NCBI RefSeq assembly: GCF_030813595.1 | Contig: NZ_JAUSUH010000002.1 | Location: 372,001-436,000 of the forward strand | Length of the DNA stretch: 64,000 bases | Origin: Ancylobacter vacuolatus | GTDB lineage: Bacteria > Pseudomonadota > Alphaproteobacteria > Rhizobiales > Xanthobacteraceae | Reading direction: 5' to 3' | Shown here: positions 5,357 through 40,067 of the stretch, one piece after another | Position numbering within the stretch: position 1 is the stretch's first letter | Layout: the number at the start of each line of letters is the position of its first letter | The notes under the pieces: generated by a model | What the model saw: the letters and a program-made list of their open reading frames with translations, nothing else | What the model was told of the DNA's origin: nothing | Databases searched by the model: none | Made by a program: the position numbers and the translations under genes

Positions 5357-6031
5357 TCAAACGGTGGGCGTCGCCCGAAACGCCGCGCCGTGGCGGGAGA
5401 AGACGGCATAGTGCCCCTTGAACCAGGGTTCGGCGGCAAGCTTGGCCCGCCAGGGCGTCGCACGGGCCGCCTCGCGCGCCCGGCTCTGCAGCGCGGCGAG
5501 ATCAGCGAGGTGATGCAGCGCCATATGGGTGAAAGCGGCGGGGTGCCCGTCGACGATGCGGTAGCGCCGGCAGCCAAGCCAGTGCTCGCAGCCCAGCAGC
5601 AGGGGAACATGGTCCTCGACATACCAGGCATTGAACGCTTCTTCATGCTCGGCCGGCACGCTGAAGAAGACGGCATAGAGATAGGCGGAATCGAGCACGC
5701 GATCATCCTCGACGTCGGGCCGCTGCTGCCAGCTGATCAGCTCGCCGGTGTAGCGGGTGAAATCCCCGACATTCGCCAGCATCCAGTTCGTCTGCTCGGA
5801 CGGGTTCTGCTTGATCCGCAGATAGTCCGGCGTCTTCAGCGCCTCCGGCGTCTGCATGTCGTAGACGGCGAGATAGGCCGGTCCCTCGACATTGCGGTAG
5901 CGCTGCGCGCCGAGAAAGCCGGGGGCTGCCATGCGGATCGGAATGTGGTGGGTGTCGTACCAACGATTGAAGTCGTCTTCCCACTCCGGGGCAGGCGTCA
6001 TTTCCGAAAACAGTACAGCTCCAGCGCGCAA
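5357..6031 (-). CDS. EthD-like tandem dimeric alpha/beta-barrel protein
   Basis: The 224-residue protein appears to contain two ferredoxin-like (dimeric alpha+beta barrel) repeats. Each has a W-Y-x-x-H-x-P pattern: FNRWYDTHHIPIRM near residue 20 and FNAWYVEDHVPLLL near residue 130. Such EthD/DUF domains occur beside oxidative catabolic genes and often bind small hydrophobic ligands or assist ring-cleavage chemistry, but no reaction can be assigned. It is the last gene of a three-gene minus-strand operon, 32 bp after the enamidase gene, which ties it to the same pathway. Confidence 0.65.
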   Translation of the reverse strand: MRAGAVLFSEMTPAPEWEDDFNRWYDTHHIPIRMAAPGFLGAQRYRNVEGPAYLAVYDMQTPEALKTPDYLRIKQNPSEQTNWMLANVGDFTRYTGELISWQQRPDVEDDRVLDSAYLYAVFFSVPAEHEEAFNAWYVEDHVPLLLGCEHWLGCRRYRIVDGHPAAFTHMALHHLADLAALQSRAREAARATPWRAKLAAEPWFKGHYAVFSRHGAAFRATPTV

Positions 6032-6063
6032 TTTGATCTCTCCTGCATTCCGCGACGTGAGGG

Positions 6064-7260
6064 TCAGTGGGACGCGCCGTCAAAGGTCTGGACGATGCGC
6101 GAGTGCGCCGTGCGGACATTGCGCATGCCGCGCGGCGTGTTCCGGCTGGCCCCGACGAAACGCGGGATGCCGGCCGTCACCACGGCCGCGACCGAAGGCA
6201 CGTCACCGTTGCGCATCGCTGAGAGGGCATCGGGCTGCGAGCCGCCGGTCCCGGCGTCGAGCAGGATGACATCGGCGTCGCGGCCGGGAGCGATCACCCC
6301 GGCGTTCAGCCGGAAATGGCGCGCATTGTTGCCCGTGGCTGCGGCGATCGCGATTTCCGGCGCCATGCCACCAAGCGCGACGAGATGCGAGATCGTGTAG
6401 AGCATGCCCAGCGGCATGATGCCCGATCCCGTGGGCGTATCGGTCGCGATGAGCAGCCGGTCGAGGGTGCCGGTGGCGGTCATCTTCTGTGCGATCAACA
6501 GAGCGGTGCGAAGATTCCCGGCCGTGCACAATTGCATCGCCACCTTCGTCTCATGGATCAGCCGGTCGAACCCCGCTTCCGGAATGGCGATAGGCCCGCC
6601 ATTCACATGAAAGGAGATGTCGGGCTGCATGGCCACCAGATGTTCGGCCCAGATGCCCGACGATCCGGGGATCGACGCGCCCCCGGTATGAACCATCGAA
6701 ATCAGCCCATGCCGCCGCGCGCTCTCGATCAGCGGCACATAGTCATAGGGTGATGGGAAGGCGCCGAAGCCCGCCTTGACGAAACGCAGCCCGGCGTGGG
6801 CCACCTCGCGTAAATCCTCGTCCGTCAGCCCCGGTTCGAGAATGAGGGCGCCGGCATGGACCTTCATGCCGCCCGGACGATAGTCGGCAAAGCATTTCAT
6901 CGCCGCCACGGCCAGCGCCTTCACGCCGACGGGGTCCTTCGGGCGGCCGGGCGTGTGCACCTCGGAAGCGGTGATCGACGAGGTCACACCGCCATGGACG
7001 TAGCTTTCGAGGAAGCCCACCGTCTTCTGGCGCGGCGTGTAGTCGCCGAAGGTGATGTGCACGTGCGAGTCGATCAGCCCGGGCGCGGCGAAGGTGCCGG
7101 CGGCGTCGATCACCACATCGGCCGCCTCGACCTCGGCGGGGCTGAGCGTGCCGACGGACTGGATCAGCCCATCGGCCATGAGAAGGGCGTCGCCGTCGCG
7201 AAAGGGCGCGTTGATGTCGCCGGAGAAAATGCCGCCAATATTGACGATGGCCGTCTTCAT
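6064..7260 (-). CDS. enamidase-like amidohydrolase (6-oxo-1,4,5,6-tetrahydronicotinate hydrolase family)
   Basis: The 398-residue metal-dependent hydrolase resembles the enamidase of Eubacterium barkeri nicotinate fermentation along its whole length, judged from memory of that sequence. Shared features are the opening NIGGIFSGDI, the metal motif DSHVHI, APRQKT-like TPRQKTVGF, GRPKDPVGVKALA, HTGGASIPGSS, a NGGPIAI motif and a closing GVIAPGRDADVI. Enamidase opens the cyclic enamide of tetrahydro-6-oxonicotinate to 2-formylglutarate and ammonia. Its ATG overlaps the TGA of the DUF1185 gene by four bases. No 6-hydroxynicotinate reductase or later formylglutarate enzyme is seen here, so the real substrate may be a related cyclic amide. 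Confidence 0.8.
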   Translation of the reverse strand: MKTAIVNIGGIFSGDINAPFRDGDALLMADGLIQSVGTLSPAEVEAADVVIDAAGTFAAPGLIDSHVHITFGDYTPRQKTVGFLESYVHGGVTSSITASEVHTPGRPKDPVGVKALAVAAMKCFADYRPGGMKVHAGALILEPGLTDEDLREVAHAGLRFVKAGFGAFPSPYDYVPLIESARRHGLISMVHTGGASIPGSSGIWAEHLVAMQPDISFHVNGGPIAIPEAGFDRLIHETKVAMQLCTAGNLRTALLIAQKMTATGTLDRLLIATDTPTGSGIMPLGMLYTISHLVALGGMAPEIAIAAATGNNARHFRLNAGVIAPGRDADVILLDAGTGGSQPDALSAMRNGDVPSVAAVVTAGIPRFVGASRNTPRGMRNVRTAHSRIVQTFDGASH

Positions 7261-7844
7261 CCCTGCGCCGCCTTCGCCTTGCGCGCCAGCACCTCCTCAT
7301 GCGTCATGCCGCCGACGCGCCAGTTCAGCCGCCGGCCGCTGGAGGCGCAGAAGATCACCGCCACTTCGTCCGCCTTCGGCCCGCCCGGCACCATCACGGT
7401 GATGCCGTCATAGTGCGAGCGGACATAGACCTCATCCTTGTGGTTCATCGGAATGTCGATCACGGTGCCGGGAGCGGCCACCTTCTGGAAGGACGATATC
7501 CAGGCCTCGCCGCCGCCAATCGCCTCGCGCACGGGATTGGCGAAAACCGTGGTGAGCAGGGCATTGGCGTGCTCCTGTTCACCCGCCAGCCCCACCAGCG
7601 CCCCCTTGCCGTATCCCTGAACCTCGAACCCCGCCATCACCTCGACCAGCTTCGCGCCGACTTTCCGTCCGAGATCGACGCTCGCCTCGATCAACGGAGA
7701 AAGATCCGCCCCCACCGTGCCGGCGAGGGGGTTTTCGACCACGAAGATGACCGCCGCCTTGCGCAGGGGCGTCTCCACGCGGACGGCCCCTTCCTCGAAG
7801 GTGTCCTCGTACTGGACTAAGACCCGCCGAATGTTCAGTTCCAT
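7257..7844 (-). CDS. amino acid synthesis family protein (DUF1185/PF06684)
   Basis: This 195-residue protein is recognised from the opening RRVLVQYEDTFEEGA, the ENPLAGTVGADLSPLIE motif, VQGYGKGALVGLAGEQEHANAL, and a GTVIDIPMNHKDEVYVRSHY segment, all typical of the DUF1185 family. Family members occur mostly in proteobacterial catabolic and amino-acid gene clusters, and their reaction is not firmly known. It is the first gene of the operon and is translationally coupled to the enamidase, which suggests that it acts on the same cyclic intermediate. A good promoter lies about 240 bp upstream. Confidence 0.75.
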   Translation of the reverse strand: MELNIRRVLVQYEDTFEEGAVRVETPLRKAAVIFVVENPLAGTVGADLSPLIEASVDLGRKVGAKLVEVMAGFEVQGYGKGALVGLAGEQEHANALLTTVFANPVREAIGGGEAWISSFQKVAAPGTVIDIPMNHKDEVYVRSHYDGITVMVPGGPKADEVAVIFCASSGRRLNWRVGGMTHEEVLARKAKAAQG

Positions 7845-8101: not shown

Positions 8102-8146
8102 CCTGACGGGCACCGCCGCGCGCGGCAGGCAGCGGGCCGGGCGGCG

Positions 8147-8596
8147 TCAGGATCCGGCCACGGCCTTCTCGAAGCTCTCGAAGAACTCCGCCGCCAGCTT
8201 CTTGGACACGGAATCGATCAGGCGCGAGCCCAGCTGCATCAGCTTTCCGCCCACATGGGCCTCGACCTCGTAGCGGAGCAGCGTGCCTTCCGCCGCCTCG
8301 GTGAGGATGACGATCGCCCCGCCCTTGGCGAACCCCGCGACGCCCCCTTCGCCTTCCCCGCGAATGCGGTAGCCATTCGGCGGATCGAGATCGAGCAGTT
8401 CCACCTTGCCCTTGAAGCTGGCCTTCACCGGGCCGAGCTTGACCTTGGCCACGGCGGAAAAGTGCGTCTCGTCATCCTGGCTTAGCGCCTCACAGCCGGG
8501 AATGCAGGCCTTTAGAACTTCGGGATCGTTGAGCTTGGCCCAGACGACATCCTTACTCGCCGGCAGTTGCACTTCTCCGGTCATCGTCATCGCCAT
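8147..8596 (-). CDS. CoxG-like SRPBCC family protein (molybdenum hydroxylase accessory)
   Basis: This 149-residue protein belongs to the carbon monoxide dehydrogenase subunit G group of the START/Bet v1-like superfamily. It opens with MTMTGEVQLPASKDVVWAKL and has the conserved LKACIPGCEALSQ motif and the VKLGPVKASFKGKVEL segment. Such proteins accompany molybdenum hydroxylases and are thought to help recruit or mature the enzyme at the membrane, although many sit in other catabolic operons. The ATG chosen gives normal family length; longer upstream frames lack similarity. It is the last gene of the long operon that also encodes the molybdopterin subunit, which supports the accessory role. Confidence 0.8.
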   Translation of the reverse strand: MAMTMTGEVQLPASKDVVWAKLNDPEVLKACIPGCEALSQDDETHFSAVAKVKLGPVKASFKGKVELLDLDPPNGYRIRGEGEGGVAGFAKGGAIVILTEAAEGTLLRYEVEAHVGGKLMQLGSRLIDSVSKKLAAEFFESFEKAVAGS

Positions 8597-8678: not shown

Positions 8679-9917
8679 TCATGCCGCCCACGGCGCGCGC
8701 TCGACATGCGCGCGAGTCAGCGCCTCAATGCGGGTGACGCCGAGAAGCGCCATGTCGCGCTCGATCTCCGCCAAAAGGAGCCGGATCGCATGCCGGACCC
8801 CGTCTTGCCCGCGCGCCGCGGCGGCGAACAGGAAGGGGCGGCCGACGAAGACGAAATGCGCGCCCAACGCGAGCGCCTTCAGCACGTCCGAGCCGCGCCG
8901 AATGCCGCCATCGACCATGACCCGCATGGGCCCGGCGACCTCGGCGATGGCCGGCAACGCCGCCAGGGCCGGCCGTGCACCATCGAGCTGGCGTCCGCCA
9001 TGATTGGAGACGATGACGCCATCGGCGCCGTGCTCGCGGGCCTGCACCGCGTCCTCGGCCGACAGCACACCTTTGAGGATCAGCCTGCCCGGCCAGCGCC
9101 GGCGGATGAGTTCAAGATGGCGCCAAGACAGCTGGTCGCGGGCCCCGATGGCGCGCACGACGTGGCGCGAAAGAATGGGCGGGCCCCGGAAGGCGTCCAT
9201 GTTCTCGAAATGCGGCACGCCATGGCGCAGAAAGGTGGCAAGCCAGGTGGCGCCGAGCCAGTGCGGCCGCGAAAGCCCATCCCACAGAAGCCGCAGCGAC
9301 GGCTGCAGGGGAATGCTGAAGCCGGTGCGGACATTGTTCTCGCGGTTGGCCGGAACCGGCACATCGGCCGTCAGCACGAAGGTATCGTAGCCGGCGGCCT
9401 CAACCCGGTCGACCATCGCCTCGATGCGCGCGTCCTCGCCGGGCAGATAAGCCTGAAACCAGCGTGCACCGCCCTGTGTCGCGACGCGCTCCAGCGGCAT
9501 CAGCGACGTCGCGCTGACGATGGCGGGGATGCCGGCCTGCGTCGCGGCGCGCGCCAGCACCAGTTCGCCCTCGAAGGTCGCAAGGCCCGACAGGCCCATC
9601 GGCGCAATGCCGAACGGCGCGTCATAGGTGGTGCCGAACAGGGTGGTGCGGGCCGAGCGGGCCGAGACGTCCGCCAGCACGCGCGGCACGAGCTCATAGC
9701 TGCGGAAGGAGGCGGCGTTGGCCTGAAACGACTGGCAGGTCTCGGCCGCGCCCGCGTAATAGCCATAGATCTGGCGCGGCAGCCGCCGACGGGCGGCCGC
9801 CTCGAAATCGGCAAGGCACAGGAACGGGGCCAGATGCCGGGGCGTCGCGTCCTCGACCCGTGGCGCCGTGACAGCCGGCGCACGCTCCTGAACCGCAGCT
9901 TCGCGCAGATGTGCCAT
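8679..9917 (-). CDS. FMN-dependent alpha-hydroxy acid dehydrogenase (copy 1)
   Basis: The 412-residue enzyme has the LldD/mandelate-dehydrogenase/glycolate-oxidase fold. The FMN-binding motif PFGIAPMGLSGL lies near residue 105, and the catalytic histidine signature VSNHGGRQLD with the downstream GGIRRGSDVLKALALGA completes the active site. These enzymes oxidise L-2-hydroxy acids to 2-oxo acids. An N-terminal extension of about 40 residues precedes the conserved domain. The gene begins one base after the stop of the D-2-hydroxyacid dehydrogenase. It is one of three paralogues in 21 kb, each near TPP decarboxylase or molybdenum hydroxylase genes, suggesting oxidation of an aromatic hydroxyacid side chain. 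Confidence 0.85.
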   Translation of the reverse strand: MAHLREAAVQERAPAVTAPRVEDATPRHLAPFLCLADFEAAARRRLPRQIYGYYAGAAETCQSFQANAASFRSYELVPRVLADVSARSARTTLFGTTYDAPFGIAPMGLSGLATFEGELVLARAATQAGIPAIVSATSLMPLERVATQGGARWFQAYLPGEDARIEAMVDRVEAAGYDTFVLTADVPVPANRENNVRTGFSIPLQPSLRLLWDGLSRPHWLGATWLATFLRHGVPHFENMDAFRGPPILSRHVVRAIGARDQLSWRHLELIRRRWPGRLILKGVLSAEDAVQAREHGADGVIVSNHGGRQLDGARPALAALPAIAEVAGPMRVMVDGGIRRGSDVLKALALGAHFVFVGRPFLFAAAARGQDGVRHAIRLLLAEIERDMALLGVTRIEALTRAHVERAPWAA

Positions 9918-28207: not shown

Positions 28208-28771
28208 ATGGAAACCCTGGCCGACACCGAGACCCGCGCCTTTTCCCCCAGGGATCTTCGCGCGACGTTCGGCCTGTTCCCCACCGGGGTGACCATCATC
28301 ACCGCCGTCGTCGGCGGGGAGCGGATCGCGGCGACCGTCAGTTCCTTTGGGTCGCTGTCACTGGACCCGCCGCTGCTCTTGTTCAGCATTGGGCGACATT
28401 CCAAGGTCTTCGCCGCCTGGAACAGCGTCACCCATTTCGCCGTCAACGTCCTCGACCAGTCGCAGAAGGAGCTGTCCGCCCGATTCGGTCGGGCGCAGCT
28501 CGATAAATGGGAAGGGGTGCGGACCCTTCGCGGCGACGCCACCGGCGCGAGCCTGTTCCCCGACGCGCTGGCCTGGTTCGAGTGTGAGACCTACCGCATC
28601 TATGAGGGCGGCGATCACATCATCACCGTCGGCCGGATTGTCGCGATGGCGCGCCGCCCCTCGGCTTCGGCCGATCCGCTCGTGTTCTTCGGCGGGAGTT
28701 ATCGCCGCCTCGACCCCGAGGCGCGGAGCGAGCCGACCCCGCACGATGCCTATTGGACCTATGGCTGGTGA
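28208..28771 (+). CDS. flavin reductase, HpaC-like partner of the oxygenase
   Basis: The 187-residue protein of the flavin_reduct family has FPTGVTIITA, the FMN/FAD-binding stretch ATVSSFGSLSLDPPLLLFSIGRHSKVF and the terminal GGSYRRL motif. It supplies reduced flavin to the upstream HpaB-type oxygenase and perhaps to the NtaA-like enzyme. A GGGAGG sequence eight bases before the ATG is a good ribosome-binding site. Its last 13 bp overlap the end of the convergent FMN hydroxyacid dehydrogenase gene. Confidence 0.9.
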   Translation: METLADTETRAFSPRDLRATFGLFPTGVTIITAVVGGERIAATVSSFGSLSLDPPLLLFSIGRHSKVFAAWNSVTHFAVNVLDQSQKELSARFGRAQLDKWEGVRTLRGDATGASLFPDALAWFECETYRIYEGGDHIITVGRIVAMARRPSASADPLVFFGGSYRRLDPEARSEPTPHDAYWTYGW

Positions 28772-30873: not shown

Positions 30874-30890
30874 GGCCTACCTGCCCCGGC

Positions 30891-31391
<501 letters not shown>

Positions 31392-31473: not shown

Positions 31474-32433
31474 TCACGGGACGAGATCAATGATCGCCTT
31501 AGCCTGCTCGGGCGTGAGCGGCTGTTCAATGAACTTGTTGGTCACGGCCCATTTGACCGACTCGTCGAAGCCCTTCACCGGCGCGAAGCGCAGCTTGTCG
31601 CGGTTGTAGAACTTGAGCGCCTCCTTTGCCGTGGAGAGGTCGATCTTGTTGAGCGCCGCGAACATCTTGGCCGACTCGTCGGGGTTGGCATAGGCCCAGT
31701 CGATGCACTCATTGAGGACCATGAAGAATTTTTCCGCCACCGGGCGGCGATTCTTCAGGAAATCATCGCTCGCAATATTCACGCGGGCGGAGATTTCGCG
31801 CTGGCTTTCAACCACGTCGCCGCTGAACAGCACGCGGATCTCGCCCTTGGCCACGGCATCGAGGCCCGACGGCGGAACGGAATAGCCGACATCGACCTGC
31901 CCGCTCATGGTCATGGTGCGCGTCGCGTCCATGCCGCCGGACGAGACCGGGGTGAAGTCGAGCTTGCGCTCGGCCTTGAGCCCCAGCAGCACCGCCTCGG
32001 TCGCCCCGCCCGGGCGGGGATAGGCGACCTTCTTGCCGGCAATGTCCTCGATCGTCTTGATCGGGCTGTTGACCGGCACATAGAAGAAGGTGTCGTTCTG
32101 CCCGACGAATTCGGAGCCGACGATCTTGATCGGCGCGCCCTTCACGAAGGCGGCGATGGCGGCGGACGTGCCGGGCGAATAGCCGATGTCCATTCCGCCG
32201 GCGATCACCGCCTGCACCGTTTCCGATCCACCGCGGGTCGGGGTGATGCGGACATCGAGCCCCGCTTTCTCAAACGCGCCGCGATCTTTGCAGAAGGTCG
32301 GCTGGGAGGTGTCCCACAGGCCGACCCAGGAGACCGCCACCTTCACCGTATCCGCCGCCGAAGCCGGCATCGGAAGTCCGCAGGCCGCCAGGGCGGCGAA
32401 GAAGGCCAGGCTCTTACCAACAGGCTTTAGCAT
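31474..32433 (-). CDS. ABC transporter substrate-binding protein, NMT1/SsuA-like
   Basis: The 319-residue periplasmic protein has a clear signal peptide ([12 protein letters not shown], then a hydrophobic stretch and cleavage after PASA-AD). The mature part follows the taurine/nitrate/thiamine-precursor-binding pattern, with [29 protein letters not shown] and [16 protein letters not shown]. The chosen ATG follows AGAGGGGA. It heads a four-gene operon with two molybdenum hydroxylase subunits and an FMN enzyme. It is the only binding protein matching the SsuC-like permeases at 13.4-15.1 kb and the SsuB-like ATPase at 38.8 kb. Confidence 0.86.
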
Positions 32434-32840: not shown

Positions 32841-34625
32841 ATGAACCTGATCAACAACGTGACCGAGGGCCAGCCCCTGACCAGCGCCAGCCAGCCGGAG
32901 CAGCCGACCGGCATTGATGCTGCCGCGCCCCAGGCCTGGGGCAGCGACCGCATCGCCGCCCTGCTGTCCCAGCTCGACATGCCCTATCTCTGTCTCAACC
33001 CCGGATCGAGCTTTCGCGGCCTGCATGACAGCGTGGTCAATTATCTCGGCAACACCTCGCCGCAGATGCTGGTCTGTCTGCATGAGGAACACGCGGTGGC
33101 CATCGCCCATGGCTATGCCAAGGCCACCGGCAAGCCGCTCGCGGTGGCGCTGCACGCCAATGTCGGCTTGATGCACGCGACCATGTCGATCTTCAACGCC
33201 TGGTGCGACCGCCTGCCGATGCTGGTGCTCGGCGCTACCGGCCCGGTGGATGCCGCCAAGCGCCGGCCCTTCATCGACTGGATCCACACCATGCGCGATC
33301 AGGGCGCGCTGGTGCGCTCCTACACCAAATGGGACGACCAGCCGGCCTCGGTCGAGGCGACGGAGGAGGCGCTGCTGCGCGCGATGCAGATCGCCCGCAC
33401 CGAACCGCAGGGCCCGGTTTACATCAATCTCGACGCCGAGGTTCAGGAGGCTCCCTATGCCGCCGGCCGCCCGATGCCAGATCTCGGGCGCTATCGCCCG
33501 GTTCCCGCCCCCGCCCCGGATCCGACGATGCTGGAAGAGGCCGCCCGCCTGCTCACCGGCGCCCGGCGCCCGGCCATATTAATGGGCCGCGCCACCCGCG
33601 ACCCGGCGGATTGGGACCGGCGCGTGCGGCTGGCGGAGAGCCTCGGCGCGATGGTGATCACCGACCTCAAGGTCGGCGCGGCCTTCCCCACCGCCCACCC
33701 CCTGCATTGCGCCGCGCCGGGCATGTCGCTCAGCAAGGCGGCGATCGCCAGGCTGACCGAGGCCGATGTCGTGCTGTCGCTGGACTGGGTGGACCTCGCC
33801 GGCTTCATCAGCACGGTGTGGCCCAACGGCCCCTGCCCCGCCAAGATCGTACTGGCCTCGGTGGACCACCATGTCCATAACGGCTTCAGCTTCGATCACA
33901 TGGCGCTGCCGCCGGTCGACCTGCATTTTGCGACCACGCCGGAGGCGTTCACCGCCGCCCTGCTGGAGCGCCTGCCCGCGCCCACGCGCAGTTACACGGT
34001 CACGCCCCGCCGGCCGGCCGCCCCCGCGCGCGGCGACGAGTTGAGCCTCGCCGATATCGCCTATGCGCTCGACCACGCGGCCGAGGGCCGGCCGGTCTGC
34101 CTGTCGCGCCTGCCGCTAGGCTGGGACGGCGCGCTGATGGATTTCAACCACCCGCTCGACCAGCTCGGCCATTCCGGTGGCGGCGGCGTCGGGTCGGGGC
34201 CGGGCATGGCGGTCGGCTCGGCGCTCGCTCTTCTGGGCAGCGGGCGGCTGCCGGTGGCGGTGCTGGGCGACGGCGACACGCTGATGGGCGTCACCGCCAT
34301 CTGGACCGCCGTGCACTACAACATTCCGATGCTCGTCATTTCCGCCAATAACCGCTCCTATTTCAATGATGAGCTGCACCAGGAGCGCGTTGCCCGCCGC
34401 CGCAGCCGGCCGGTGGAGAATCGCTGGATCGGCCAGCGCATCGCCGATCCCGAGCCCGACATCGCCAAGATGGCGGAAGCCCAGGGTGCGCTGGGATTTG
34501 GTCCGATCTGCGATCCCGACGCATTGCGGGTCGCGATGAAAGCGGCGGTCGAGGCGGTCGTCGCCGGTAAGGTGGCCGTGCTCGATGTGCATATCGGTCC
34601 CGGCTATGCGGGGAGCGGCGGCTGA
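32841..34625 (+). CDS. TPP-dependent decarboxylase/lyase-like enzyme (copy 2)
   Basis: The 594-residue paralogue of the enzyme at 15.1 kb shares LNPGSSFRGLHDSVVNYLGN, the catalytic-glutamate segment LHEEHAVAIAHGYAKATGK and the PP-domain motif VLGDGDTLMG ... VISANNRSYF. Its central linker is shorter and lacks the Pro-Ala run. The ATG follows GCAGGGA at moderate distance; a TTG three bases earlier is also possible. It is paired directly with an aldehyde dehydrogenase gene 45 bp downstream, repeating the decarboxylase/aldehyde-dehydrogenase pairing of the other copy. Confidence 0.8.
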   Translation: MNLINNVTEGQPLTSASQPEQPTGIDAAAPQAWGSDRIAALLSQLDMPYLCLNPGSSFRGLHDSVVNYLGNTSPQMLVCLHEEHAVAIAHGYAKATGKPLAVALHANVGLMHATMSIFNAWCDRLPMLVLGATGPVDAAKRRPFIDWIHTMRDQGALVRSYTKWDDQPASVEATEEALLRAMQIARTEPQGPVYINLDAEVQEAPYAAGRPMPDLGRYRPVPAPAPDPTMLEEAARLLTGARRPAILMGRATRDPADWDRRVRLAESLGAMVITDLKVGAAFPTAHPLHCAAPGMSLSKAAIARLTEADVVLSLDWVDLAGFISTVWPNGPCPAKIVLASVDHHVHNGFSFDHMALPPVDLHFATTPEAFTAALLERLPAPTRSYTVTPRRPAAPARGDELSLADIAYALDHAAEGRPVCLSRLPLGWDGALMDFNHPLDQLGHSGGGGVGSGPGMAVGSALALLGSGRLPVAVLGDGDTLMGVTAIWTAVHYNIPMLVISANNRSYFNDELHQERVARRRSRPVENRWIGQRIADPEPDIAKMAEAQGALGFGPICDPDALRVAMKAAVEAVVAGKVAVLDVHIGPGYAGSGG

Positions 34626-34670: not shown

Positions 34671-36134
34671 ATGACCATGCCGACCTATACCGACGTGCTC
34701 CCCCACCATCGCAATCTCTATTATGGCGGCCAGTGGCTCAAGGCGGGGAGCGGAAAGACCGACACCACCATCAACCCCGCGACCGGCGAGTCGCTGGGAA
34801 GCTGGGCGGTGGCCGATGCGACCGATGTCGATGCCGCCGTGCGCAAGGCGCTGGAAGGGTTCCGCGTCTGGCGCGCGGTGAAGCCGGCGGATCGCGCCGT
34901 CATCCTGCGGCAGGCGGCGCAGGTGATCCGCGACCATGCCGAGGAGATCGCCTTGATCGATTCCGCCGATTCCGGCGGGCCCTACCGGCGGATGATCCGC
35001 GATTCGGAAGGCGGGGCCGCCGCCTTCGAGTTCTTCGCCGGCCTCGTGACGGAAATGAAGGGCTCGACCCTTCCACTCGGCGACGACACGCTGAACTACA
35101 CGATGCGCGAGCCGCTCGGCGTGGTGGTGCGCATCAATGCCTATAACCACCCCTTCCTGTTCGCCGCCTCGCGCGCGGCGGCGCCCCTGGCGGCCGGCAA
35201 TGCGCTTATCATCAAGCCACCGGATCAGGCCCCGCTGTCGACCCTGCGCCTCGCCGAACTGATCGGGCCGCTCTTCCCGCCCGGCGTCATCAACGTGCTG
35301 ACCGGCGGGCGCGAATGCGGCGAGGCGCTGGTCGAGCACCCGCTCGTCGCCAAGGTGGCGCTGATCGGCTCGGTGCCGACCGGCAAGGCCATCGCCCGCG
35401 CCGCCGCCGGCACGCTGAAGAAAGTCGGGCTCGAACTCGGCGGCAAGAACGCGCTCATCGCCTATCCCGACAGCGATCCGGCCAAGGTGGCGGCCGGCGC
35501 CGTCAACGGCATGAACTTCACCTGGTGCGGGCAGTCCTGCGGCTCCACCTCGCGAATCTTCCTTCACGACAACATCCATGATGAGGTGGTGGAGGGCATC
35601 CTCAAGGCGGTCGAGGCCTACCGGTTCGGCCTGCCCACCGACGAGGCGACGCAGATGGGGTGCATGATCAGCGCGCAGCAGCTGAGCAAGACCGAGCATT
35701 ATGTCGCCCTCGCCCTGAAGGAAGGCGCGCGGCTCGTCGCTGGCGGCGCCCGGCCCAGCGACCCGATCTATTCCCGCGGTTTCTTCTATCCTCCGACCGT
35801 GTTCACAGACGTGACGCCGGACATGACCATCGCCCGCGAGGAAGTGTTCGGGCCGGTGATGTCGATCCTGCGCTGGCGCGACGAGGACGCGATGATCGAG
35901 GCGGTGAACCGCTCCGAACTCGGCCTCACCGCCTCGATCTGGACCCGGAACCTTGCCACGGCGCATCGGGCGGCGGCGCGGGTGGAAGCCGGCTATATCT
36001 GGATCAACGGCAGCAGCACCCACACGCTGGGCGCGCCGTTCGGCGGCTACAAGCAGTCCGGCCTCGGCCGCGAGGAATCGCTGGAAGAGCTGCTGGAATG
36101 CACCCAGCTCAAGAACATCAACGTCTCGCTCTGA
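34671..36134 (+). CDS. NAD(P)-dependent aldehyde dehydrogenase (betaine/benzaldehyde type, copy 2)
   Basis: The 487-residue enzyme has the cofactor motif AYNHPFLFAASRAA, LIGSVPTGKAIARAA, the general base in LELGGKNALI and the catalytic cysteine in WCGQSCGSTSRIF. It differs considerably from the copy at 16.9 kb, so the two aldehyde dehydrogenases were recruited separately even though the TPP enzymes are paralogues. It likely oxidises the aldehyde made by the upstream TPP enzyme. A second ATG six bases in is an equally good start. Confidence 0.88.
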   Translation: MTMPTYTDVLPHHRNLYYGGQWLKAGSGKTDTTINPATGESLGSWAVADATDVDAAVRKALEGFRVWRAVKPADRAVILRQAAQVIRDHAEEIALIDSADSGGPYRRMIRDSEGGAAAFEFFAGLVTEMKGSTLPLGDDTLNYTMREPLGVVVRINAYNHPFLFAASRAAAPLAAGNALIIKPPDQAPLSTLRLAELIGPLFPPGVINVLTGGRECGEALVEHPLVAKVALIGSVPTGKAIARAAAGTLKKVGLELGGKNALIAYPDSDPAKVAAGAVNGMNFTWCGQSCGSTSRIFLHDNIHDEVVEGILKAVEAYRFGLPTDEATQMGCMISAQQLSKTEHYVALALKEGARLVAGGARPSDPIYSRGFFYPPTVFTDVTPDMTIAREEVFGPVMSILRWRDEDAMIEAVNRSELGLTASIWTRNLATAHRAAARVEAGYIWINGSSTHTLGAPFGGYKQSGLGREESLEELLECTQLKNINVSL

Positions 36135-36182: not shown

Positions 36183-36192
36183 CCTCCGGGGT

Positions 36193-36684
36193 TCAGGCGT
36201 CGAGGCGTTCGCGGGCGTCGGCCCGGCCGCTGGACTGAGGATACTCCGCGAGCAGAGCGTCGGTGATGTCGTCGAGCACCGCGAACAGAGCCTCGACATC
36301 CTTCGGCTTCAGGTTCTTGCGCGCGCACAGATTCACCACGCGGGCCCGCTCCAGCAGCACCGGCTTCAGCGCGAGCCCCGCCTCGGTGAGGTAGACGTTG
36401 ATCTTGCGGCGGTCCTTCGGGTTGCGGACCCGCCGCACGAAGCTGAGCCGCTCCAGCTCGTCGAGAATGGTGGTCGACGAGGCCGTCTCGATGCCGACGG
36501 CACGGGAGAGTTCAGCCTGGGTGGGGCCGTCATTCTCCCAGAGCTTCTGAAGATGCACGAACTGGCCGAAGGACACGTCGACCTTGGCGAGTTCGTGACG
36601 AAAGGCCCGGCTGAACGCCATGTGGGCCCGCCGAAGGTGCCAGCCTATCCCGATTTCGGCCTGCTTCTCATCCGCCTCCGACAT
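36193..36684 (-). CDS. MarR family transcriptional regulator (first)
   Basis: The 163-residue regulator has a winged helix around residues 50-110: TQAELSRAVGIETASSTTIL is the recognition helix region and RRVRNPKDRRKINVYLTEAG is the basic wing. The N-terminal part (HLRRAHMAFSRAFRHEL) forms the dimer helices. It is divergent from the Rieske/amidohydrolase operon with 110 bp between starts, and that gap contains a perfect AAGGCGCCTT palindrome plus a second near copy inside the promoter. It probably represses its own gene and that operon, released by an aromatic ligand. Confidence 0.88.
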   Translation of the reverse strand: MSEADEKQAEIGIGWHLRRAHMAFSRAFRHELAKVDVSFGQFVHLQKLWENDGPTQAELSRAVGIETASSTTILDELERLSFVRRVRNPKDRRKINVYLTEAGLALKPVLLERARVVNLCARKNLKPKDVEALFAVLDDITDALLAEYPQSSGRADARERLDA

Positions 36685-36771: not shown

Positions 36772-36794
36772 GTACCTTATTGTATGAGGCCCTC

Positions 36795-37160
36795 ATGAAC
36801 GAGCTGTATGTTTGCAAGGTCGGCGAACTCGACGATGGCGGGGTCCGTATCGTCGGCGAGCCGGGCCATCGGATCGGCGTCATGCTGCATGACGGAGAGT
36901 ACCTCGCGTATCTCAACCGCTGCCCGCATCAGGGCGGCCCCGCCTGCGAAGGGATGCGCATCCCCCAGGTCCAGGATGTCATCGACGAGGCTGGGCTGTT
37001 CGTTGGCCAGCGCTACGATGAGTCCGACCTTCACATTGTGTGCCCGTGGCACGGCTATGAATTCCACATCAAGACCGGCGAGCATGTCTGCAATTCGGCG
37101 GTGCGGCTGCGCAAATACGCCACGGTCGTGCGGGAGGGCGGAATCTATGTCCAGTATTGA
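36795..37160 (+). CDS. stand-alone Rieske [2Fe-2S] protein
   Basis: This 121-residue protein carries the two Rieske cluster motifs: RCPHQGGPAC near residue 37 and VCPWHGYEF near residue 80. The spacing between them is enlarged by a segment QVQDVIDEAGLFVG, common in ferredoxin-type Rieske proteins of catabolic operons. No dioxygenase large subunit is encoded nearby, so it may be an electron carrier for another oxidoreductase or a sensor-like partner of the amidohydrolase. ATG with GAGG eight bases upstream is preferred to a TTG five codons earlier. Confidence 0.85.
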   Translation: MNELYVCKVGELDDGGVRIVGEPGHRIGVMLHDGEYLAYLNRCPHQGGPACEGMRIPQVQDVIDEAGLFVGQRYDESDLHIVCPWHGYEFHIKTGEHVCNSAVRLRKYATVVREGGIYVQY

Positions 37161-37497
37161 CCTGGGCCTGATCCCGACCGCCGAGCTCGCGGCCGAGCTT
37201 ACCCGGCGCTTCAGCGCGGCAGCGGAGTGCGATGTGGCACGCGTCGCCAGCGACGATGTGGGCATGGTGCTCGCCCACGCCATCCGCCTGCTGGCGGAGC
37301 GCGCGCAACAGGGCCTGCCGCCCTGTACCTTTCCCGGCAACAACACGCTCTCGGCGACCGATGCGGTGATCGCCTGCACCGCCCTGCTCGAGAGCGTCGA
37401 ACTCGCCGTCTTTGAACTCGCCGCCTGGCAGGCCGTCTCCAATATCGGCTCCAGCCGGCTCGCACGCCCTTTGCCTGTTACGGAGCCGGGTCGATGA
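37147..37497 (+). CDS. small protein of unknown function in the Rieske operon
   Basis: This 116-residue protein is not recognised. It overlaps the Rieske gene by 14 bp and the amidohydrolase gene by 4 bp, so all three are likely translated together. Residues 5-60 look helical (AELAAELTRRFSAAAE, MVLAHAIRLLAERA), followed by a short loop with one cysteine in PPCTFPGNN and a further helix. It has no signal peptide or membrane segment. Tight coupling suggests a subunit or chaperone for the Rieske protein or the amidohydrolase. Confidence 0.7.
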   Translation: MSSIDLGLIPTAELAAELTRRFSAAAECDVARVASDDVGMVLAHAIRLLAERAQQGLPPCTFPGNNTLSATDAVIACTALLESVELAVFELAAWQAVSNIGSSRLARPLPVTEPGR

Positions 37498-38732
37498 CCG
37501 CCACTGCCGGAGTCTTCAGAGAACCCCTGCGCAAGTCCTTTGACACCGAGGAGCATCTCGGCAACGCCTATCAACAGGCGTTGGAGCGCAATTACGAGGA
37601 CTTCCTGATCGTCGACGTGGACTCGCACCACTACGAGACGGAAGCTTTCGGCGAGATCGCCCGCTACATTGAGGACCCGGTCCTGCGCGACGAGGCCCTC
37701 TATCAGGGCATGGCGCGCGGTGGCGTGACCTCGGTGGATGGCTCCTATCAGGAAATGACCGGACGGGTGACGCGCTATCCGCTGCGCCGCCACGAGGCGA
37801 CCCCGCCGACCATCCATCGCGACATCACGCTGATGCGTCGCTGGATGGACGCCATGGGCGTCGACATGGCCTGCATGTTCCCAACCCCGATGCTGAACAT
37901 CGCCACCTGCCCGCGTGTGGAAGTCGAGGTGGCGCTGGCGCGGGCGTATAATCGCTGGCTCTGCGACAATATCCTGTCGGAGGAGCCGCGCCTGACCTCC
38001 ATGCTCTATCTGCCGTTCAACGACCCGGAATCCTGCTACCGCATGGTCGAGGAGTTCGGCGACCGCAAGGGCGTCATCGGCTTCATGGTGACGGCCACGC
38101 ACTACAAGAGCGTGCAGGACAACGCCTTCGTGAAGACCTATGCGGCCCTGCAGGAACGCGGCCTGCCGCTCGGCTTCCACGCCGCCTATACGTGGGGCGA
38201 CAAGTCGACGGCGCTGATGAACCGCTTCATCTCTGTCCATGCCCTCGGTTTCGTCTGGCACAATATGGTGCACATGACGAACTGGCTCATGAACGGCATG
38301 CCCGAGCGCTTCCCCCGCCTCAAGACGCTCTGGATCGAAAGCGGCCTGGCATGGGTGCCCTTCCTCATGCAGCGCCTCGATAACGAATTCATGATGCGCA
38401 GCTCCGACGCCCCGCTGCTTAAGCGCAAGCCCAGCGACTACATGCGGGAGATGTTCTACACCTCACAACCCATGGAAATGGTCGAGAACAAGGAAGCGCT
38501 GGAACTCACCTTCAAGATGATGAAGGCGGAAAGCCAGCTGCTCTATTCGTCGGACTACCCCCACTGGGACATGGATCTGCCGAGCACGATCTACGACCTC
38601 CCCTTCCTTCAGGAAGGACAGAAGCGCGCCATACTGGGCGGCAACGCGCAGGACCTGTTCAAGCTCGATCCGCACTTCGCCCCCTGGAAGCTGGAGCGCC
38701 AGAAGCAGCGGGCCATGGCCGCGCGTGGCTGA
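37494..38732 (+). CDS. amidohydrolase-2 family metal-dependent hydrolase/decarboxylase (ACMSD-like)
   Basis: The 412-residue TIM-barrel protein of PF04909 has metal-ligand candidates in VDVDSHHYE (the usual D-x-H is shifted), GFHAAYTWG and the Asp in YSSDYPHWD near the end. Family members decarboxylate or hydrolyse ring-derived acids, for example aminocarboxymuconate semialdehyde or hydroxybenzoates. In this operon a decarboxylation or ring-opening step on an aromatic intermediate is plausible. It starts within the last codons of the small unknown gene. Whether it hydrolyses or decarboxylates cannot be settled from sequence. Confidence 0.82.
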   Translation: MTATAGVFREPLRKSFDTEEHLGNAYQQALERNYEDFLIVDVDSHHYETEAFGEIARYIEDPVLRDEALYQGMARGGVTSVDGSYQEMTGRVTRYPLRRHEATPPTIHRDITLMRRWMDAMGVDMACMFPTPMLNIATCPRVEVEVALARAYNRWLCDNILSEEPRLTSMLYLPFNDPESCYRMVEEFGDRKGVIGFMVTATHYKSVQDNAFVKTYAALQERGLPLGFHAAYTWGDKSTALMNRFISVHALGFVWHNMVHMTNWLMNGMPERFPRLKTLWIESGLAWVPFLMQRLDNEFMMRSSDAPLLKRKPSDYMREMFYTSQPMEMVENKEALELTFKMMKAESQLLYSSDYPHWDMDLPSTIYDLPFLQEGQKRAILGGNAQDLFKLDPHFAPWKLERQKQRAMAARG

Positions 38733-38820: not shown

Positions 38821-39636
38821 ATGATGCACGCACAGGCAGTCAGCCCGGCAATGGCAGGCTCGGTTCCGGCACTGAGCTTGAAGAATGTCGGCAAGTCCTA
38901 TGGAACAGGCGCGGAGCCGATATGGGCCGTGCGTGACTTCTCGCTCGATGTGGCCAATGGCGAGTTCATCTCGATCATCGGCCCCAGCGGTTGCGGCAAG
39001 TCGACCCTGTTCAACATCATCGGCGGTTTCTTCAACCGCTATGACGGCGACGTGGTCGTCCACGGCAAATCCGACCCCGGCGCCCGCCGCACGATCGGCA
39101 GTGTGTTCCAGGAGGAATCGACCTTCGCCTGGCGCACCGCGATCGAGAATGTGATGTTTCCGCTAGAGGCGCTCGGCATCCCCAAGCCGGAGCGGATCGA
39201 GCGGGCCCGCGATACGCTCGCGCTGGTGGGGCTCGAAGGCTTCGAGAACCATTACCCCGCCGCCATGTCGGGCGGCATGCGCCAGCGCGTCTCCATCGCC
39301 CGCACCCTCGTCGTCCGGCCGCAGATCCTGCTGATGGATGAGCCCTTCGCCGCGCTCGACGAACAAACCCGCATTCTGCTGGGCGACAAAGTGCTGCAGA
39401 TCCAGCAGCAGCTGAAGCAAACCACCGTGCTGATCACGCACAACCTGACGGAAGCCGTGCTGCTCAGCGACCGCGTGGTGATCATGACCTACCGTCCGGG
39501 GCGAATAAAGCGCATCGTGGACATTGACCTCCCGCATCCGCGCACCTCCGACATCATCACCACGGACCGTTTTGGCCAGCTGGTCGGCACGATCTGGGCG
39601 GATCTGCGCGATGAATCCAATCGCGGGATGAAGTAA
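38821..39636 (+). CDS. ABC transporter ATP-binding protein, SsuB/TauB-like
   Basis: This 271-residue ATPase has Walker A GPSGCGKST, a Q-loop in VFQEESTFAWRTA, signature MSGGMRQRVSIAR, Walker B ILLMDEPFAALD and switch histidine in LITHNLTEAVLLS. This type pairs with SsuC/TauC permeases and NMT1-like binding proteins. No such permease is encoded in this operon; the permeases lie 24 kb to the left and the binding protein 7 kb to the left. Together they probably make one importer encoded in three operons. Confidence 0.9.
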   Translation: MMHAQAVSPAMAGSVPALSLKNVGKSYGTGAEPIWAVRDFSLDVANGEFISIIGPSGCGKSTLFNIIGGFFNRYDGDVVVHGKSDPGARRTIGSVFQEESTFAWRTAIENVMFPLEALGIPKPERIERARDTLALVGLEGFENHYPAAMSGGMRQRVSIARTLVVRPQILLMDEPFAALDEQTRILLGDKVLQIQQQLKQTTVLITHNLTEAVLLSDRVVIMTYRPGRIKRIVDIDLPHPRTSDIITTDRFGQLVGTIWADLRDESNRGMK

Positions 39637-39704
39637 CCCGCCATGCGTGCGGCCCGGCTCGCGGCTGCGGGCAGGCCGCGCCCCTTTCAACCAGCGAGGC
39701 TTTC

Positions 39705-40067
39705 ATGAACATCCAGCGTATCAATACGCGGAATCTGCCGCATCGCGGGGACTCCGTGACTTGGAATGGCTGCGTGCATCTGTCGGGCATCATGCCGTCG
39801 GACGAGACCGTATCCATCGCCGAGCAGACGGCCGACGTACTGCGCGAAATCGAGGCTCAGCTCGCCAATGCCGGCACCTCCAAGGCCGCGCTGATCTCGG
39901 CGACGGTCTGGCTCGCCGATCTCGACCGCGATTTCGAAGGCTTCAACGCGGTGTGGCGGGGCTGGGTCGATCGCGACAATCTGCCGGCGCGAGCCTGCGT
40001 GCAGGCGAAGCTGCACGGCAAGGGGCTGCTGGAAATCGCCGCTATCGCCGCCACACCGCCCGTCTGA
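39705..40067 (+). CDS. RidA/YjgF family protein
   Basis: The 120-residue protein opens with MNIQRINTRNLPHRGDSVTW and has the conserved arginine in PARACVQAKLHGKGLLEIAAIA, needed for imine hydrolysis in RidA proteins. The family hydrolyses enamine/imine intermediates to keto acids and ammonia. In a pathway that contains an enamidase and an aminotransferase, hydrolysis of a reactive enamine intermediate is a sensible role. It lies 68 bp after the ATPase gene at the end of the MarR-controlled operon. Confidence 0.88.
   Translation: MNIQRINTRNLPHRGDSVTWNGCVHLSGIMPSDETVSIAEQTADVLREIEAQLANAGTSKAALISATVWLADLDRDFEGFNAVWRGWVDRDNLPARACVQAKLHGKGLLEIAAIAATPPV

What the first reader, a model, noticed from the sequence alone, without database searches (positions are those of the whole stretch)
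5357..40067. Putative catabolic island for an N-heteroaromatic acid
Enamidase, molybdenum hydroxylase, UbiD/UbiX decarboxylase, HpaB/HpaC-type and NtaA-type flavin monooxygenases, aminotransferase, RidA, ACMSD-like amidohydrolase, two importers and two MarR regulators lie within 35 kb. Each family is known in aromatic or N-heterocycle breakdown, but I know of no described cluster with this whole set. The combination suggests a ring with N, a carboxylate and a hydroxy- or oxo-acid side chain. This pathway is the strongest candidate for an undescribed system in the window.
Basis: partly seen in the sequence, partly recalled or inferred. Interest (0 to 1): 0.75.

Follow-up and report, generated by a model that had tools for sequence, protein, structure and literature searches.

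The report
Modular gene island for N-heterocycle acids
A bacterium carries a 35-kb set of genes that looks built to trim the acid side chain off a nitrogen-containing ring and then open the ring with water rather than with the usual ring-splitting enzymes; pieces of the set recur together in other bacteria, but the compound it breaks down is unknown.

Summary
Mo-hydroxylase subunits and one ABC importer are split over both halves, which argues for one unit.

Best reading: a ring with a 2-oxo/2-hydroxy/amino-acid side chain is shortened to the ring carboxylate, decarboxylated (UbiD), hydroxylated (HpaBC) and opened hydrolytically by AA_synth/EthD/enamidase. The enamidase matches the known enzyme 2vun at 339 bits. 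Its sister clade occurs mostly in genomes with an annotated 6-hydroxynicotinate reductase; the window's genome has none, and the window's clade mostly lies with oxygenases.

Modules recur piecewise (HpaB in 8 of 11 enamidase loci, 0 of 40 control stretches). The whole set was seen only here; one Bosea MAG has the right half. Several side-chain genes show no enrichment. Substrate and step order are inferred. New variant of a known kind.

The parts
675..5329 (+).
   Evidence: Pfam
5357..6001 (-). EthD-like / DUF4286 protein, inferred tautomerase or lactam isomerase
   Evidence: Pfam; near AA_synth/enamidase in L105, L108, L130, L138, L040 and others, but in only 3 of 11 order-sample enamidase loci
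6064..7260 (-). enamidase (amidohydrolase family)
   Evidence: 2vun ENAMIDASE 339 bits, alignment with HVH, HTGG, H(V/I)NGG and D regions in register
7257..7844 (-). AA_synth (PF06684/DUF1185), overlaps enamidase by 4 bases
   Evidence: Pfam 200.6 bits; structures 2qtp/3byq; linked to enamidase in the order sample
8147..8596 (-). CoxG-like protein (Mo-hydroxylase accessory)
   Evidence: Pfam
8679..9917 (-). FMN-dependent 2-hydroxyacid dehydrogenase 1, mandelate-dehydrogenase-like
   Evidence: Pfam; (S)-mandelate dehydrogenase 6bfg 249 bits, after two L-lactate oxidase entries, 7f22 283 and 7f20 270 bits
9919..10935 (-). D-2-hydroxyacid dehydrogenase
   Evidence: Pfam
10969..13338 (-). molybdenum hydroxylase, large subunit
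   Evidence: Pfam; CODH and glyceraldehyde-dehydrogenase alpha models best, below cut-off; no AYRCSFR loop
13442..15107 (-). two ABC permeases of the NMT1/SsuA-type importer
   Evidence: Pfam, NCBIfam
15138..16913 (-). TPP-dependent decarboxylase 1 (PRK08327 and benzoylformate-decarboxylase models best, below cut-off)
   Evidence: Pfam, NCBIfam
16934..18367 (-). aldehyde dehydrogenase 1
   Evidence: Pfam; nearest linked relatives seen stand beside AROs (52% in L161, 48% in L153 and L154)
18379..19449 (-). FMN-dependent 2-hydroxyacid dehydrogenase 2
   Evidence: Pfam; 48% in ARO cluster L149
19503..20768 (-). class-III aminotransferase
   Evidence: Pfam
20971..22050 (-). zinc alcohol dehydrogenase
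   Evidence: Pfam
22383..23708 (+). NtaA/DmoA-type FMN monooxygenase; no step assigned
   Evidence: TIGR03860 533 bits, over cut-off
23729..24307 (-). DUF2390/TIGR02444 protein next to UbiX
24307..24888 (-). UbiX flavin prenyltransferase
24897..26315 (-). UbiD decarboxylase
   Evidence: closest structure 7pda 388 bits
26625..28154 (+). HpaB-type oxygenase
   Evidence: 80 loci kept of 116 relatives
28208..28771 (+). HpaC-type flavin reductase
28759..29910 (-). FMN-dependent 2-hydroxyacid dehydrogenase 3
   Evidence: Pfam
30070..31322 (-). molybdenum hydroxylase medium (30070-30873) and small (30891-31322) subunits
31474..32433 (-). NMT1/SsuA-like binding protein of the second importer
32841..34625 (+). 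TPP-dependent decarboxylase 2 (51% identical to TPP 1)
   Evidence: no PDB sequence at E 1e-30
34671..36134 (+). aldehyde dehydrogenase 2
36193..36684 (-). MarR regulator 1; homologue in 3 of 9 order-sample ARO loci
36780..37160 (+). Rieske ferredoxin (CxH...CxxH present)
   Evidence: next to the ARO in 9 of 9 order-sample loci
37147..37497 (+). 116-aa conserved helical protein between ferredoxin and ARO; possible third component
   Evidence: alignment of 6 homologues; no Pfam hit; low-confidence model
37494..38732 (+). amidohydrolase-related dinuclear oxygenase (ARO), not ACMSD-like
38929..39636 (+). ATPase of the second importer
39705..40067 (+). RidA-family protein (imine deaminase role inferred)
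40406..40936 (+).

Best explanation
A single composite catabolic island for a nitrogen-heteroaromatic compound with a short acid side chain. (1) Import by the NMT1/SsuA-type ABC system and perhaps the Liv-type system. (2) The side chain is reduced to a ring carboxylate by one-carbon shortening: amino, L-hydroxy and D-hydroxy forms become the 2-oxo acid (class-III aminotransferase, three FMN enzymes, D-2-hydroxyacid dehydrogenase), a TPP enzyme removes CO2, and an aldehyde dehydrogenase or the Mo enzyme makes the acid. The ARO with its Rieske ferredoxin hydroxylates the CH2 next to the ring (arylacetate to arylglycolate), so a second round ends at the ring carboxylate; that would explain two TPP enzymes, two aldehyde dehydrogenases and several hydroxyacid dehydrogenases. 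(3) UbiD, with prenyl-FMN from UbiX, removes the ring carboxylate. (4) HpaBC hydroxylates the bare ring, giving a hydroxy-pyridone- or pyrrolinone-like lactam. (5) EthD/AA_synth and the enamidase open the ring by tautomerisation and hydrolysis to an omega-semialdehyde plus ammonia (RidA clears imines), and an aldehyde dehydrogenase feeds it to central metabolism. Shown: the genes, their families and the recurring neighbourhoods. Inferred: every reaction, their order, the ring and the substrate. A pyridine is the favoured ring because the sister enamidase clade is found with an annotated 6-hydroxynicotinate reductase; a pyrrole is the runner-up.
For: Gene content. Unity: Mo-hydroxylase subunits and one ABC importer are each split between the left (10.9-15.1 kb) and right (30-39.6 kb) halves. 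Enamidase. Window-type HpaB in 4 of 397 order genomes, window-type enamidase in 13, and all 4 HpaB genomes have it (without the window's genome 3 of 3 against 12 of 396, hypergeometric 2e-5). Of 13 other HpaB genomes that I chose for, 10 have an enamidase of 57% identity or more. HpaB-family gene in 8 of 11 enamidase loci and AA_synth in 9 of 11, both 0 of 40 control stretches; UbiD in 25 of 46 full-length HpaB loci and a Mo large subunit in 14 of 46, both 0 of 40; TPP in 8 of 46 against 0 of 40. Roseomonas locus L040 holds MarR-HpaC-HpaB-FMN dehydrogenase-TPP-Mo large subunit-EthD-AA_synth-enamidase in about 12 kb. Pseudolabrys L037 has an alanine-dehydrogenase-type enzyme, D-2-hydroxyacid dehydrogenase, DAO and an AsnC regulator among UbiD/UbiX/TPP/ALDH/HpaB. 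ARO next to Rieske ferredoxin in 9 of 9 loci; L149 combines ARO with FMN dehydrogenase, TPP, ALDH, UbiD, UbiX and CoxG. In Aminobacter (L161) an ARO lies with an ALDH, an aminotransferase, a TPP enzyme and 4-hydroxybenzoate 3-monooxygenase. No 6-hydroxynicotinate reductase in the window or in the 23 other window-type enamidase loci scanned, whereas 23 of 26 sample genomes with the sister clade have it.
Against: The complete set was seen only in this window. L025 (Bosea MAG), syntenic on the right, lacks the Mo subunits at that place, and no close enamidase was found in its genome. None of the 9 order-sample ARO loci has HpaB or enamidase within its 20-kb stretch. Side-chain genes are weakly tied: by the strict test TPP and FMN dehydrogenase each in 1 of 9 ARO loci; around HpaB, FMN dehydrogenase 2 of 46, aldehyde dehydrogenase 6 of 46 (1 of 40 in controls), D-2-hydroxyacid dehydrogenase 5 of 46 (1 of 40), class-III aminotransferase 2 of 46 (2 of 40), none of these significant; RidA in 0 of 80 HpaB loci. 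The aldehyde dehydrogenase 16934-18367 resembles ARO-linked enzymes (48-52%) more than the enamidase-linked ones (41-43%), so its role in the last step is doubtful. AROs also occur with benzenoid genes (L161). Most enamidase loci with an HpaB carry a different subclade (38-41% to the window's); L105 and L108 have an FAD_binding_3 enzyme, and in L106, L107, L127, L133 and L138 neither was seen. Only 12 of 27 sister-clade enamidase genes have the reductase within 30 kb, and 3 of 7 window-type genomes have it elsewhere.
Confidence: 0.45

Rival explanations
1. Two or three separate catabolic pathways that happen to lie side by side: an oxygenase-linked enamidase pathway for one N-heterocycle, and an ARO/TPP/UbiD pathway for a benzenoid arylacetate or mandelate.
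For: ARO loci and enamidase loci do not overlap in the order sample (0 of 9 and 0 of 11). In Aminobacter the ARO lies with 4-hydroxybenzoate 3-monooxygenase and 4-carboxy-4-hydroxy-2-oxoadipate aldolase. Bosea L025 has the right half, and no close enamidase was found in its genome.
Against: Subunits of one Mo enzyme and of one ABC importer are scattered over both halves. L040 joins HpaB, FMN dehydrogenase, TPP, Mo large subunit and enamidase. No ring-cleavage dioxygenase family for a benzenoid ring was found among the 40 proteins scanned.
Confidence: 0.35
2. An aryl or hydroxyaryl amino acid (arylglycine or tyrosine type) is degraded through a phenol: UbiD makes a phenol, HpaBC a catechol or hydroquinone, and ring cleavage is encoded elsewhere; the enamidase handles an unrelated amide.
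For: Mandelate-dehydrogenase-like FMN enzyme, TPP enzymes with benzoylformate-decarboxylase similarity, closest HpaB structures are 4-hydroxyphenylacetate and chlorophenol enzymes, benzenoid ARO cluster L161.
Against: Enamidase co-occurs with the window-type HpaB genome-wide (3 of 3 against 12 of 396).
Confidence: 0.12
3. An indole substrate: tryptophan or indoleacetate shortened to indole-3-carboxylate, decarboxylated to indole and oxidised.
For: The side-chain chemistry fits; a UbiD for indole-3-carboxylate is known (AnInD, PMC8988006, passages read).
Against: Window UbiD is far closer to 7pda (388 bits) than to AnInD (108 bits); what 7pda acts on I could not find. Relatives of the enamidase and AA_synth lie with genes annotated for nicotinate.
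Confidence: 0.05

Closest known systems
Nicotinate breakdown through 6-hydroxynicotinate reductase and enamidase (Eubacterium barkeri Ena, structure 2vun, reaction as told in PMC7356986 passages; annotated clusters in Sulfitobacter, L204/L205)
   Same: Enamidase (41% to the Sulfitobacter protein; 339 bits to 2vun), AA_synth, a Mo hydroxylase, MarR
   Different: No 6-hydroxynicotinate reductase or UPF0280 match in the window; oxygenase (HpaBC) and UbiD instead; single rather than tandem AA_synth. The reductase name is the record's annotation, not tested here
AROs: AibH1H2 with Rieske protein AibG, and SfbO (PMC7782822 search listing only; PMC10401708 passages; PMC10811679 first of three parts and passages)
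   Same: PF04909, adjacent small Rieske ferredoxin, SDYPHWD motif including the residue aligned with AibH2 D342
   Different: A conserved small helical protein sits between ferredoxin and ARO; substrate unknown; side-chain and UbiD genes around it
Mandelate pathway (recalled)
   Same: FMN 2-hydroxyacid dehydrogenase, TPP decarboxylase, aldehyde dehydrogenase in series
   Different: Several copies of each, with UbiD/HpaBC/enamidase beside them
Picolinate pic cluster (PMC10142695, passages)
   Same: Oxidative attack and later decarboxylation of a pyridine acid; a MarR regulator (PicR)
   Different: No gene for the 2,5-dihydroxypyridine dioxygenase or maleamate steps recognised in the window; the paper on PicB is not held, so its homology was not tested
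Pyridine pyr pathway of Arthrobacter 68b (recalled; paper not held)
   Same: Two-component flavin monooxygenase, amidohydrolase, semialdehyde dehydrogenase
   Different: Bare pyridine, no UbiD or side-chain genes recalled; homology not tested
Lumichrome catabolism, lum cluster (PMC12746152, abstract, outline and first two of six parts)
   Same: TPP-dependent decarboxylation, xanthine-oxidase-type and Rieske enzymes combined on an N-heterocycle
   Different: Different enzymes and ring; extradiol cleavage

Membership tests
Enamidase (Ena, 2vun) | Full-length similarity to the characterised enzyme | tested here: met
   339 bits over residues 2-381
Enamidase (Ena, 2vun) | Conserved histidine and aspartate motifs in register (ligand roles recalled) | tested here: met
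   HVH, HTGG, HVNGG and ATDTP regions align with those of 2vun
Enamidase (Ena, 2vun) | Hydrolysis of a cyclic enamide | not testable with these tools
   needs enzyme assay
Reductive nicotinate pathway | 6-hydroxynicotinate reductase present | tested here: not met
   no match in the window nor in its genome at E 1e-40
ARO (amidohydrolase-related dinuclear oxygenase) | PF04909 member closest to AROs | tested here: met
   five best PDB sequences are 8sm7, 8sm6, 8sm9, 6m1w_B, 8sm8
ARO (amidohydrolase-related dinuclear oxygenase) | Small Rieske protein with CxH...CxxH in the same unit | tested here: met
   36780-37160; adjacent in 9 of 9 homologous loci
ARO (amidohydrolase-related dinuclear oxygenase) | Dinuclear metal site and O2-dependent hydroxylation | not testable with these tools
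   His, Asp and Glu residues invariant in 6 homologues; metals and activity unknown
ACMSD-like decarboxylase | Closest to ACMSD | tested here: not met
   37 bits against 126 for 8sm7
UbiD/UbiX system | UbiD three-domain protein with adjacent UbiX | tested here: met
   TIGR00148 and TIGR00421 over cut-off
4-hydroxyphenylacetate 3-monooxygenase (HpaB) | NCBIfam HpaB equivalog cut-off | tested here: not met
   347 of 480 bits and 291 of 885 bits: family member, not the equivalog
Mandelate pathway | Substrate specificity of FMN dehydrogenase and TPP decarboxylase | not testable with these tools
   similarity only

The most novel reading that the evidence does not exclude
An undescribed aerobic strategy for N-heteroaromatic acids: iterative one-carbon removal of the side chain driven by a three-part ARO oxygenase, prenyl-FMN decarboxylation of the ring, flavin hydroxylation, and purely hydrolytic ring opening by an AA_synth/EthD/enamidase unit related to that of a reductive nicotinate pathway, with no ring-cleaving dioxygenase. 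It would also give the Pfam family 'AA_synth' (PF06684) a first real role, as a partner in opening lactam rings.
Probability: 0.3. Interest if true: 0.7.

Novelty: new variant of a known kind. Interest (0 to 1): 0.5.

Why it matters
If true, ring opening of an N-heterocycle would need no ring-cleaving dioxygenase: an oxygenase makes a lactam and an enamidase unit hydrolyses it. The neighbourhood tables give concrete targets. PF06684 'AA_synth', whose structure paper (PMC2954203, abstract and passages) guesses a role in amino-acid metabolism, is here tied to enamidase and 6-hydroxynicotinate reductase: 30 of 31 enamidase genomes in a 160-genome sample have it, as do 27 of the 129 others, and 31 of 39 reductase genes have it within 10 kb. 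AROs gain a catabolic setting seen in several clusters (aldehyde dehydrogenase, Mo hydroxylase, MarR, sometimes TPP, 2-hydroxyacid dehydrogenase or UbiD) and a conserved small partner protein. Both are directly testable with purified proteins.

Tried and rejected
ACMSD-like decarboxylase for 37494-38732: rejected on structure ranking.

Succinate-semialdehyde dehydrogenase for 16934-18367: the NCBIfam SSADH model scores 484 bits, below the 646 cut-off, and ARO-linked aldehyde dehydrogenases are closer, so it is not used as evidence for a C4 product.

Whole-cluster orthologue in G028: HpaB (77%) and enamidase (66%) are there but on different contigs; only a partial match.

DUF2848/cupin genes, present beside HpaB in Bosea and others, as an obligatory ring-opening step: the window's genome has no DUF2848 match (13 of the 20 genomes searched have one), so they are an alternative or accessory module.

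Structure of the 116-aa protein: four helices, mean pLDDT 63; too weak, no fold search made. A first enamidase tree held wrongly extracted rows with extreme branches (L115, L116, L120, L125, L126); it was rebuilt without them (32 rows), where the 28 window-type rows separate from the two Sulfitobacter and two Rhodococcus rows (99/98). Four further loci (L122, L123, L125, L126) could not be added, so the reductase-type side of the tree rests on two rows. The strict test (half the query in one piece) missed a TPP gene in L149 (shown by Pfam) and one in L151 that is cut by the end of the stretch.

Literature: searches. No paper held both 'enamidase' and 'pyrrole'; one held enamidase, amidohydrolase and monooxygenase, on 4-hydroxypyridine (PMC7356986, abstract and passages); none held DUF2848. 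These searches cover open-licence PMC only, so absence is weak. What 7pda is was looked for in one paper only and not found.

Full report
What is there. Left, on the minus strand: EthD/DUF4286, enamidase, AA_synth, CoxG, an FMN 2-hydroxyacid dehydrogenase, a D-2-hydroxyacid dehydrogenase, the Mo-hydroxylase large subunit, two ABC permeases, a TPP decarboxylase, an aldehyde dehydrogenase, a second FMN dehydrogenase, a class-III aminotransferase and a zinc alcohol dehydrogenase. Middle: NtaA-type monooxygenase, DUF2390, UbiX, UbiD, HpaB, HpaC and a third FMN dehydrogenase. Then the Mo medium and small subunits and the NMT1-type binding protein. Right: a second TPP enzyme and aldehyde dehydrogenase, MarR, Rieske ferredoxin, a 116-aa protein, the PF04909 protein, the ABC ATPase, RidA and a second MarR. 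Spacing is tight over most runs. The subunits of the one Mo enzyme and of the one NMT1-type importer are divided between both halves, which is the best direct argument in the sequence that this is one unit.

The PF04909 protein. The five best structure sequences are four proteins studied as AROs (8sm7, 8sm6, 8sm9, 8sm8) and chain B of 6m1w, which I take to be AibH2. PMC10811679 (first part of three and passages) identifies AROs by a neighbouring small Rieske gene, and the window has one with the CxH...CxxH motif. The aspartate that matters in AibH2 (D342, PMC10401708 passages) aligns with D359 here, read from the alignment. In 397 genomes of the order, 7 including the window's carry a close homologue, and in all 9 loci taken from the six others the ferredoxin lies beside it. 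Between them sits a small protein, conserved in the six sequences aligned and annotated as hypothetical at the same place in all five plasmid clusters opened, out of 96 matching records.

What travels with the ARO. L149 has FMN dehydrogenase, MarR, aldehyde dehydrogenase, TPP enzyme, TctABC transporter, ARO, small protein, ferredoxin, UbiD, UbiX and CoxG in about 14 kb. L148 has UbiD, MarR, Mo hydroxylase and CoxG, and a binding protein 80% identical to ones of HpaB loci L039 and L139. L150 has two aldehyde dehydrogenases and a TPP enzyme. Three plasmids carry an alpha-hydroxy-acid oxidase, MarR, ferredoxin, small protein and ARO. Aminobacter L161 has an aldehyde dehydrogenase, ARO, small protein, ferredoxin, 4-hydroxybenzoate 3-monooxygenase, an aminotransferase and a TPP enzyme. 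Against 40 control stretches the strict test finds, in the 9 order-sample loci, aldehyde dehydrogenase in 4 (1 of 40 in controls), Mo large subunit 3 (0), MarR1 3 (0), UbiD 2 (0), CoxG 2 (0), but TPP 1 (0) and FMN dehydrogenase 1 (0), the last two not significant. L152 shows none of these partners and L155 only the Mo subunits. The Aminobacter case suggests the chemistry: an arylacetate hydroxylated next to the ring, oxidised, decarboxylated and oxidised to a ring carboxylate. That is an inference; no ARO is known here to do it. It also shows that AROs occur with benzenoid pathways, so the ARO itself does not imply a nitrogen ring.

HpaB and UbiD. The collection scan found 116 relatives, of which 80 loci were kept. 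Of the 80, 36 hold a UbiD match and 18 one of at least 45% identity; 29 hold the MarR2 homologue at 45% or more; 20 a Mo large subunit (none at 45%); 8 a TPP enzyme; 6 the aldehyde dehydrogenase 2 type at 45% or more; 7 an enamidase; 3 an NtaA; 2 an aminotransferase of this kind; 2 a match to each FMN dehydrogenase; 1 (L025) the ARO; none RidA. Of the 46 loci of 20 kb or more, 25 have a UbiD, against 0 of 40 controls; TPP 8 against 0; aldehyde dehydrogenase 6 against 1, D-2-hydroxyacid dehydrogenase 5 against 1, FMN dehydrogenase 2 against 0 and class-III aminotransferase 2 against 2 are not significant. L025, a Bosea MAG, is syntenic from the second FMN dehydrogenase to the ABC ATPase at 45-92% identity, but has DUF2848, a cupin and another binding protein where the window has only 332 bases, lacks the Mo subunits there, and no close enamidase was found in its genome. 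In Pseudolabrys L037 the neighbours of UbiD, TPP, aldehyde dehydrogenase and HpaB are an alanine-dehydrogenase-type enzyme, a D-2-hydroxyacid dehydrogenase, a DAO-type oxidase and an AsnC/Lrp regulator, which points to an amino-acid-like substrate that is deaminated to a 2-oxo acid.

Enamidase and AA_synth. The enamidase aligns with 2vun over almost its whole length. In 397 order genomes the window-type enamidase (E up to 1e-120) occurs in 13 and the window-type HpaB (E up to 1e-180) in 4; all 4 HpaB genomes have the enamidase, which without the window's own genome is 3 of 3 against 12 of 396. The two genes are 5 and 13 kb apart in G127 and G377 and on different contigs in G028. Of 13 other HpaB genomes that I picked, 10 have an enamidase of 57% or more, two only a 40-41% one and the Bosea MAG none. 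Of the 12 other enamidase genomes 11 were opened as loci and the twelfth seen as plasmid L108; of the 11, 8 hold an HpaB-family gene and 9 an AA_synth. Most of these HpaBs belong to another subclade, 38-41% identical to the window's. In Agrobacterium vitis and Mariluticola plasmids an FAD_binding_3 monooxygenase stands in that place, and the Mariluticola one is most like PnpA and 6-hydroxy-3-succinoylpyridine 3-monooxygenase, enzymes that, as I recall, replace a substituent by OH. In L106, L107, L127, L133 and L138 I saw neither kind in the stretch. So the oxygenase is exchangeable and the enamidase/AA_synth unit is the constant part. My guess that an FAD enzyme of this type does in one step what UbiD plus HpaBC do in two is untested.

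The anchor to nicotinate. A sister enamidase clade (39-46% to the window's) lies on Sulfitobacter plasmids with a gene annotated 6-hydroxynicotinate reductase, a Mo enzyme, UPF0280 and two AA_synth genes. In a 160-genome sample AA_synth is in 57 genomes and any enamidase of the subfamily (E up to 1e-30) in 31, with 30 in both; 22 of 34 enamidase genes have AA_synth within 15 kb. The reductase is in 39 genomes, in 23 of 26 with the sister clade, and within 10 kb of AA_synth in 31 of 39; but only 12 of 27 sister-clade enamidase genes have it within 30 kb, and 14 genomes have the reductase with no enamidase. Genomes are related, so small p-values overstate independence. Near the window-type enamidase the reductase was not found: no hit in the window, in the 23 other window-type loci scanned or in L109, and none within 30 kb on the same contig in the 7 window-type genomes of the sample, three of which have it elsewhere. 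The tree of 32 rows separates the two kinds, with only two rows on the Sulfitobacter side. I conclude that the window's unit is probably the oxygenase-fed version of a ring-opening unit whose other version is fed by a reductase, which makes an N-heteroaromatic ring likely and a pyridine the favoured one.

Mechanism and doubts. The proposed order is import, side-chain shortening, UbiD, HpaBC, hydrolytic opening, with RidA clearing imines. Only gene presence and neighbourhood are shown. The Mo enzyme lacks the CO-dehydrogenase loop as I recall it (AYRCSFR), and its subunits score best with CO- and glyceraldehyde-dehydrogenase models below cut-off, so it could oxidise an aldehyde or hydroxylate the ring. 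The NtaA-type monooxygenase has no assigned step. Since ARO and enamidase loci were not found together outside this window, a reading as neighbouring but separate pathways keeps real weight (0.35).

Host. The window lies in a 5.0-Mb, 29-contig assembly. A 'same order' genome matches the Mariluticola plasmid at identical coordinates, so the order is inferred to be Hyphomicrobiales; the genus is not named. Of the 24 same-genus genomes searched, none has an HpaB above 42% identity, so the island looks accessory.

Noticed in passing
window 41217-50000: Downstream of the island: a Fic-domain gene, a T2SSE-type ATPase domain fused to a TrbC/VirB2 pilin domain (42644-43957), a DEAD helicase, two tRNA-Gly genes (43943 and 49407) and GC down to 0.59; perhaps a remnant of a conjugative or integrative element.
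   Followed up: partly
PF06684 in the 160-genome order sample: AA_synth genes often stand as tandem pairs (20 pairs under 300 bp apart among 108 places) and near 6-hydroxynicotinate reductase; the family name looks like a misnomer.
   Followed up: yes
L025 3850-5856; also L037, L039, L042, L043, L048, L052, L061, L062, L067, L068, L092: A DUF2848 (FAA-hydrolase-like) gene, a cupin and an NMT1-like binding protein recur beside HpaB and may be an alternative ring-opening module; no paper in the held library names DUF2848.
   Followed up: partly
L044, L050, L054, L070, L072, L074, L093 and L148, L149: A second, longer UbiD type (about 560 aa) is shared between HpaB loci and ARO loci.
   Followed up: no
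window 23729-24307: DUF2390/TIGR02444 gene overlaps ubiX by one base; a homologue stands at the same place in L025 (45%); role unknown.
   Followed up: no
L157 (Thioclava plasmid pLX02): A plasmid with an ARO cluster also carries a PLSDB-predicted BKC-1 beta-lactamase gene at the start of the record.
   Followed up: no
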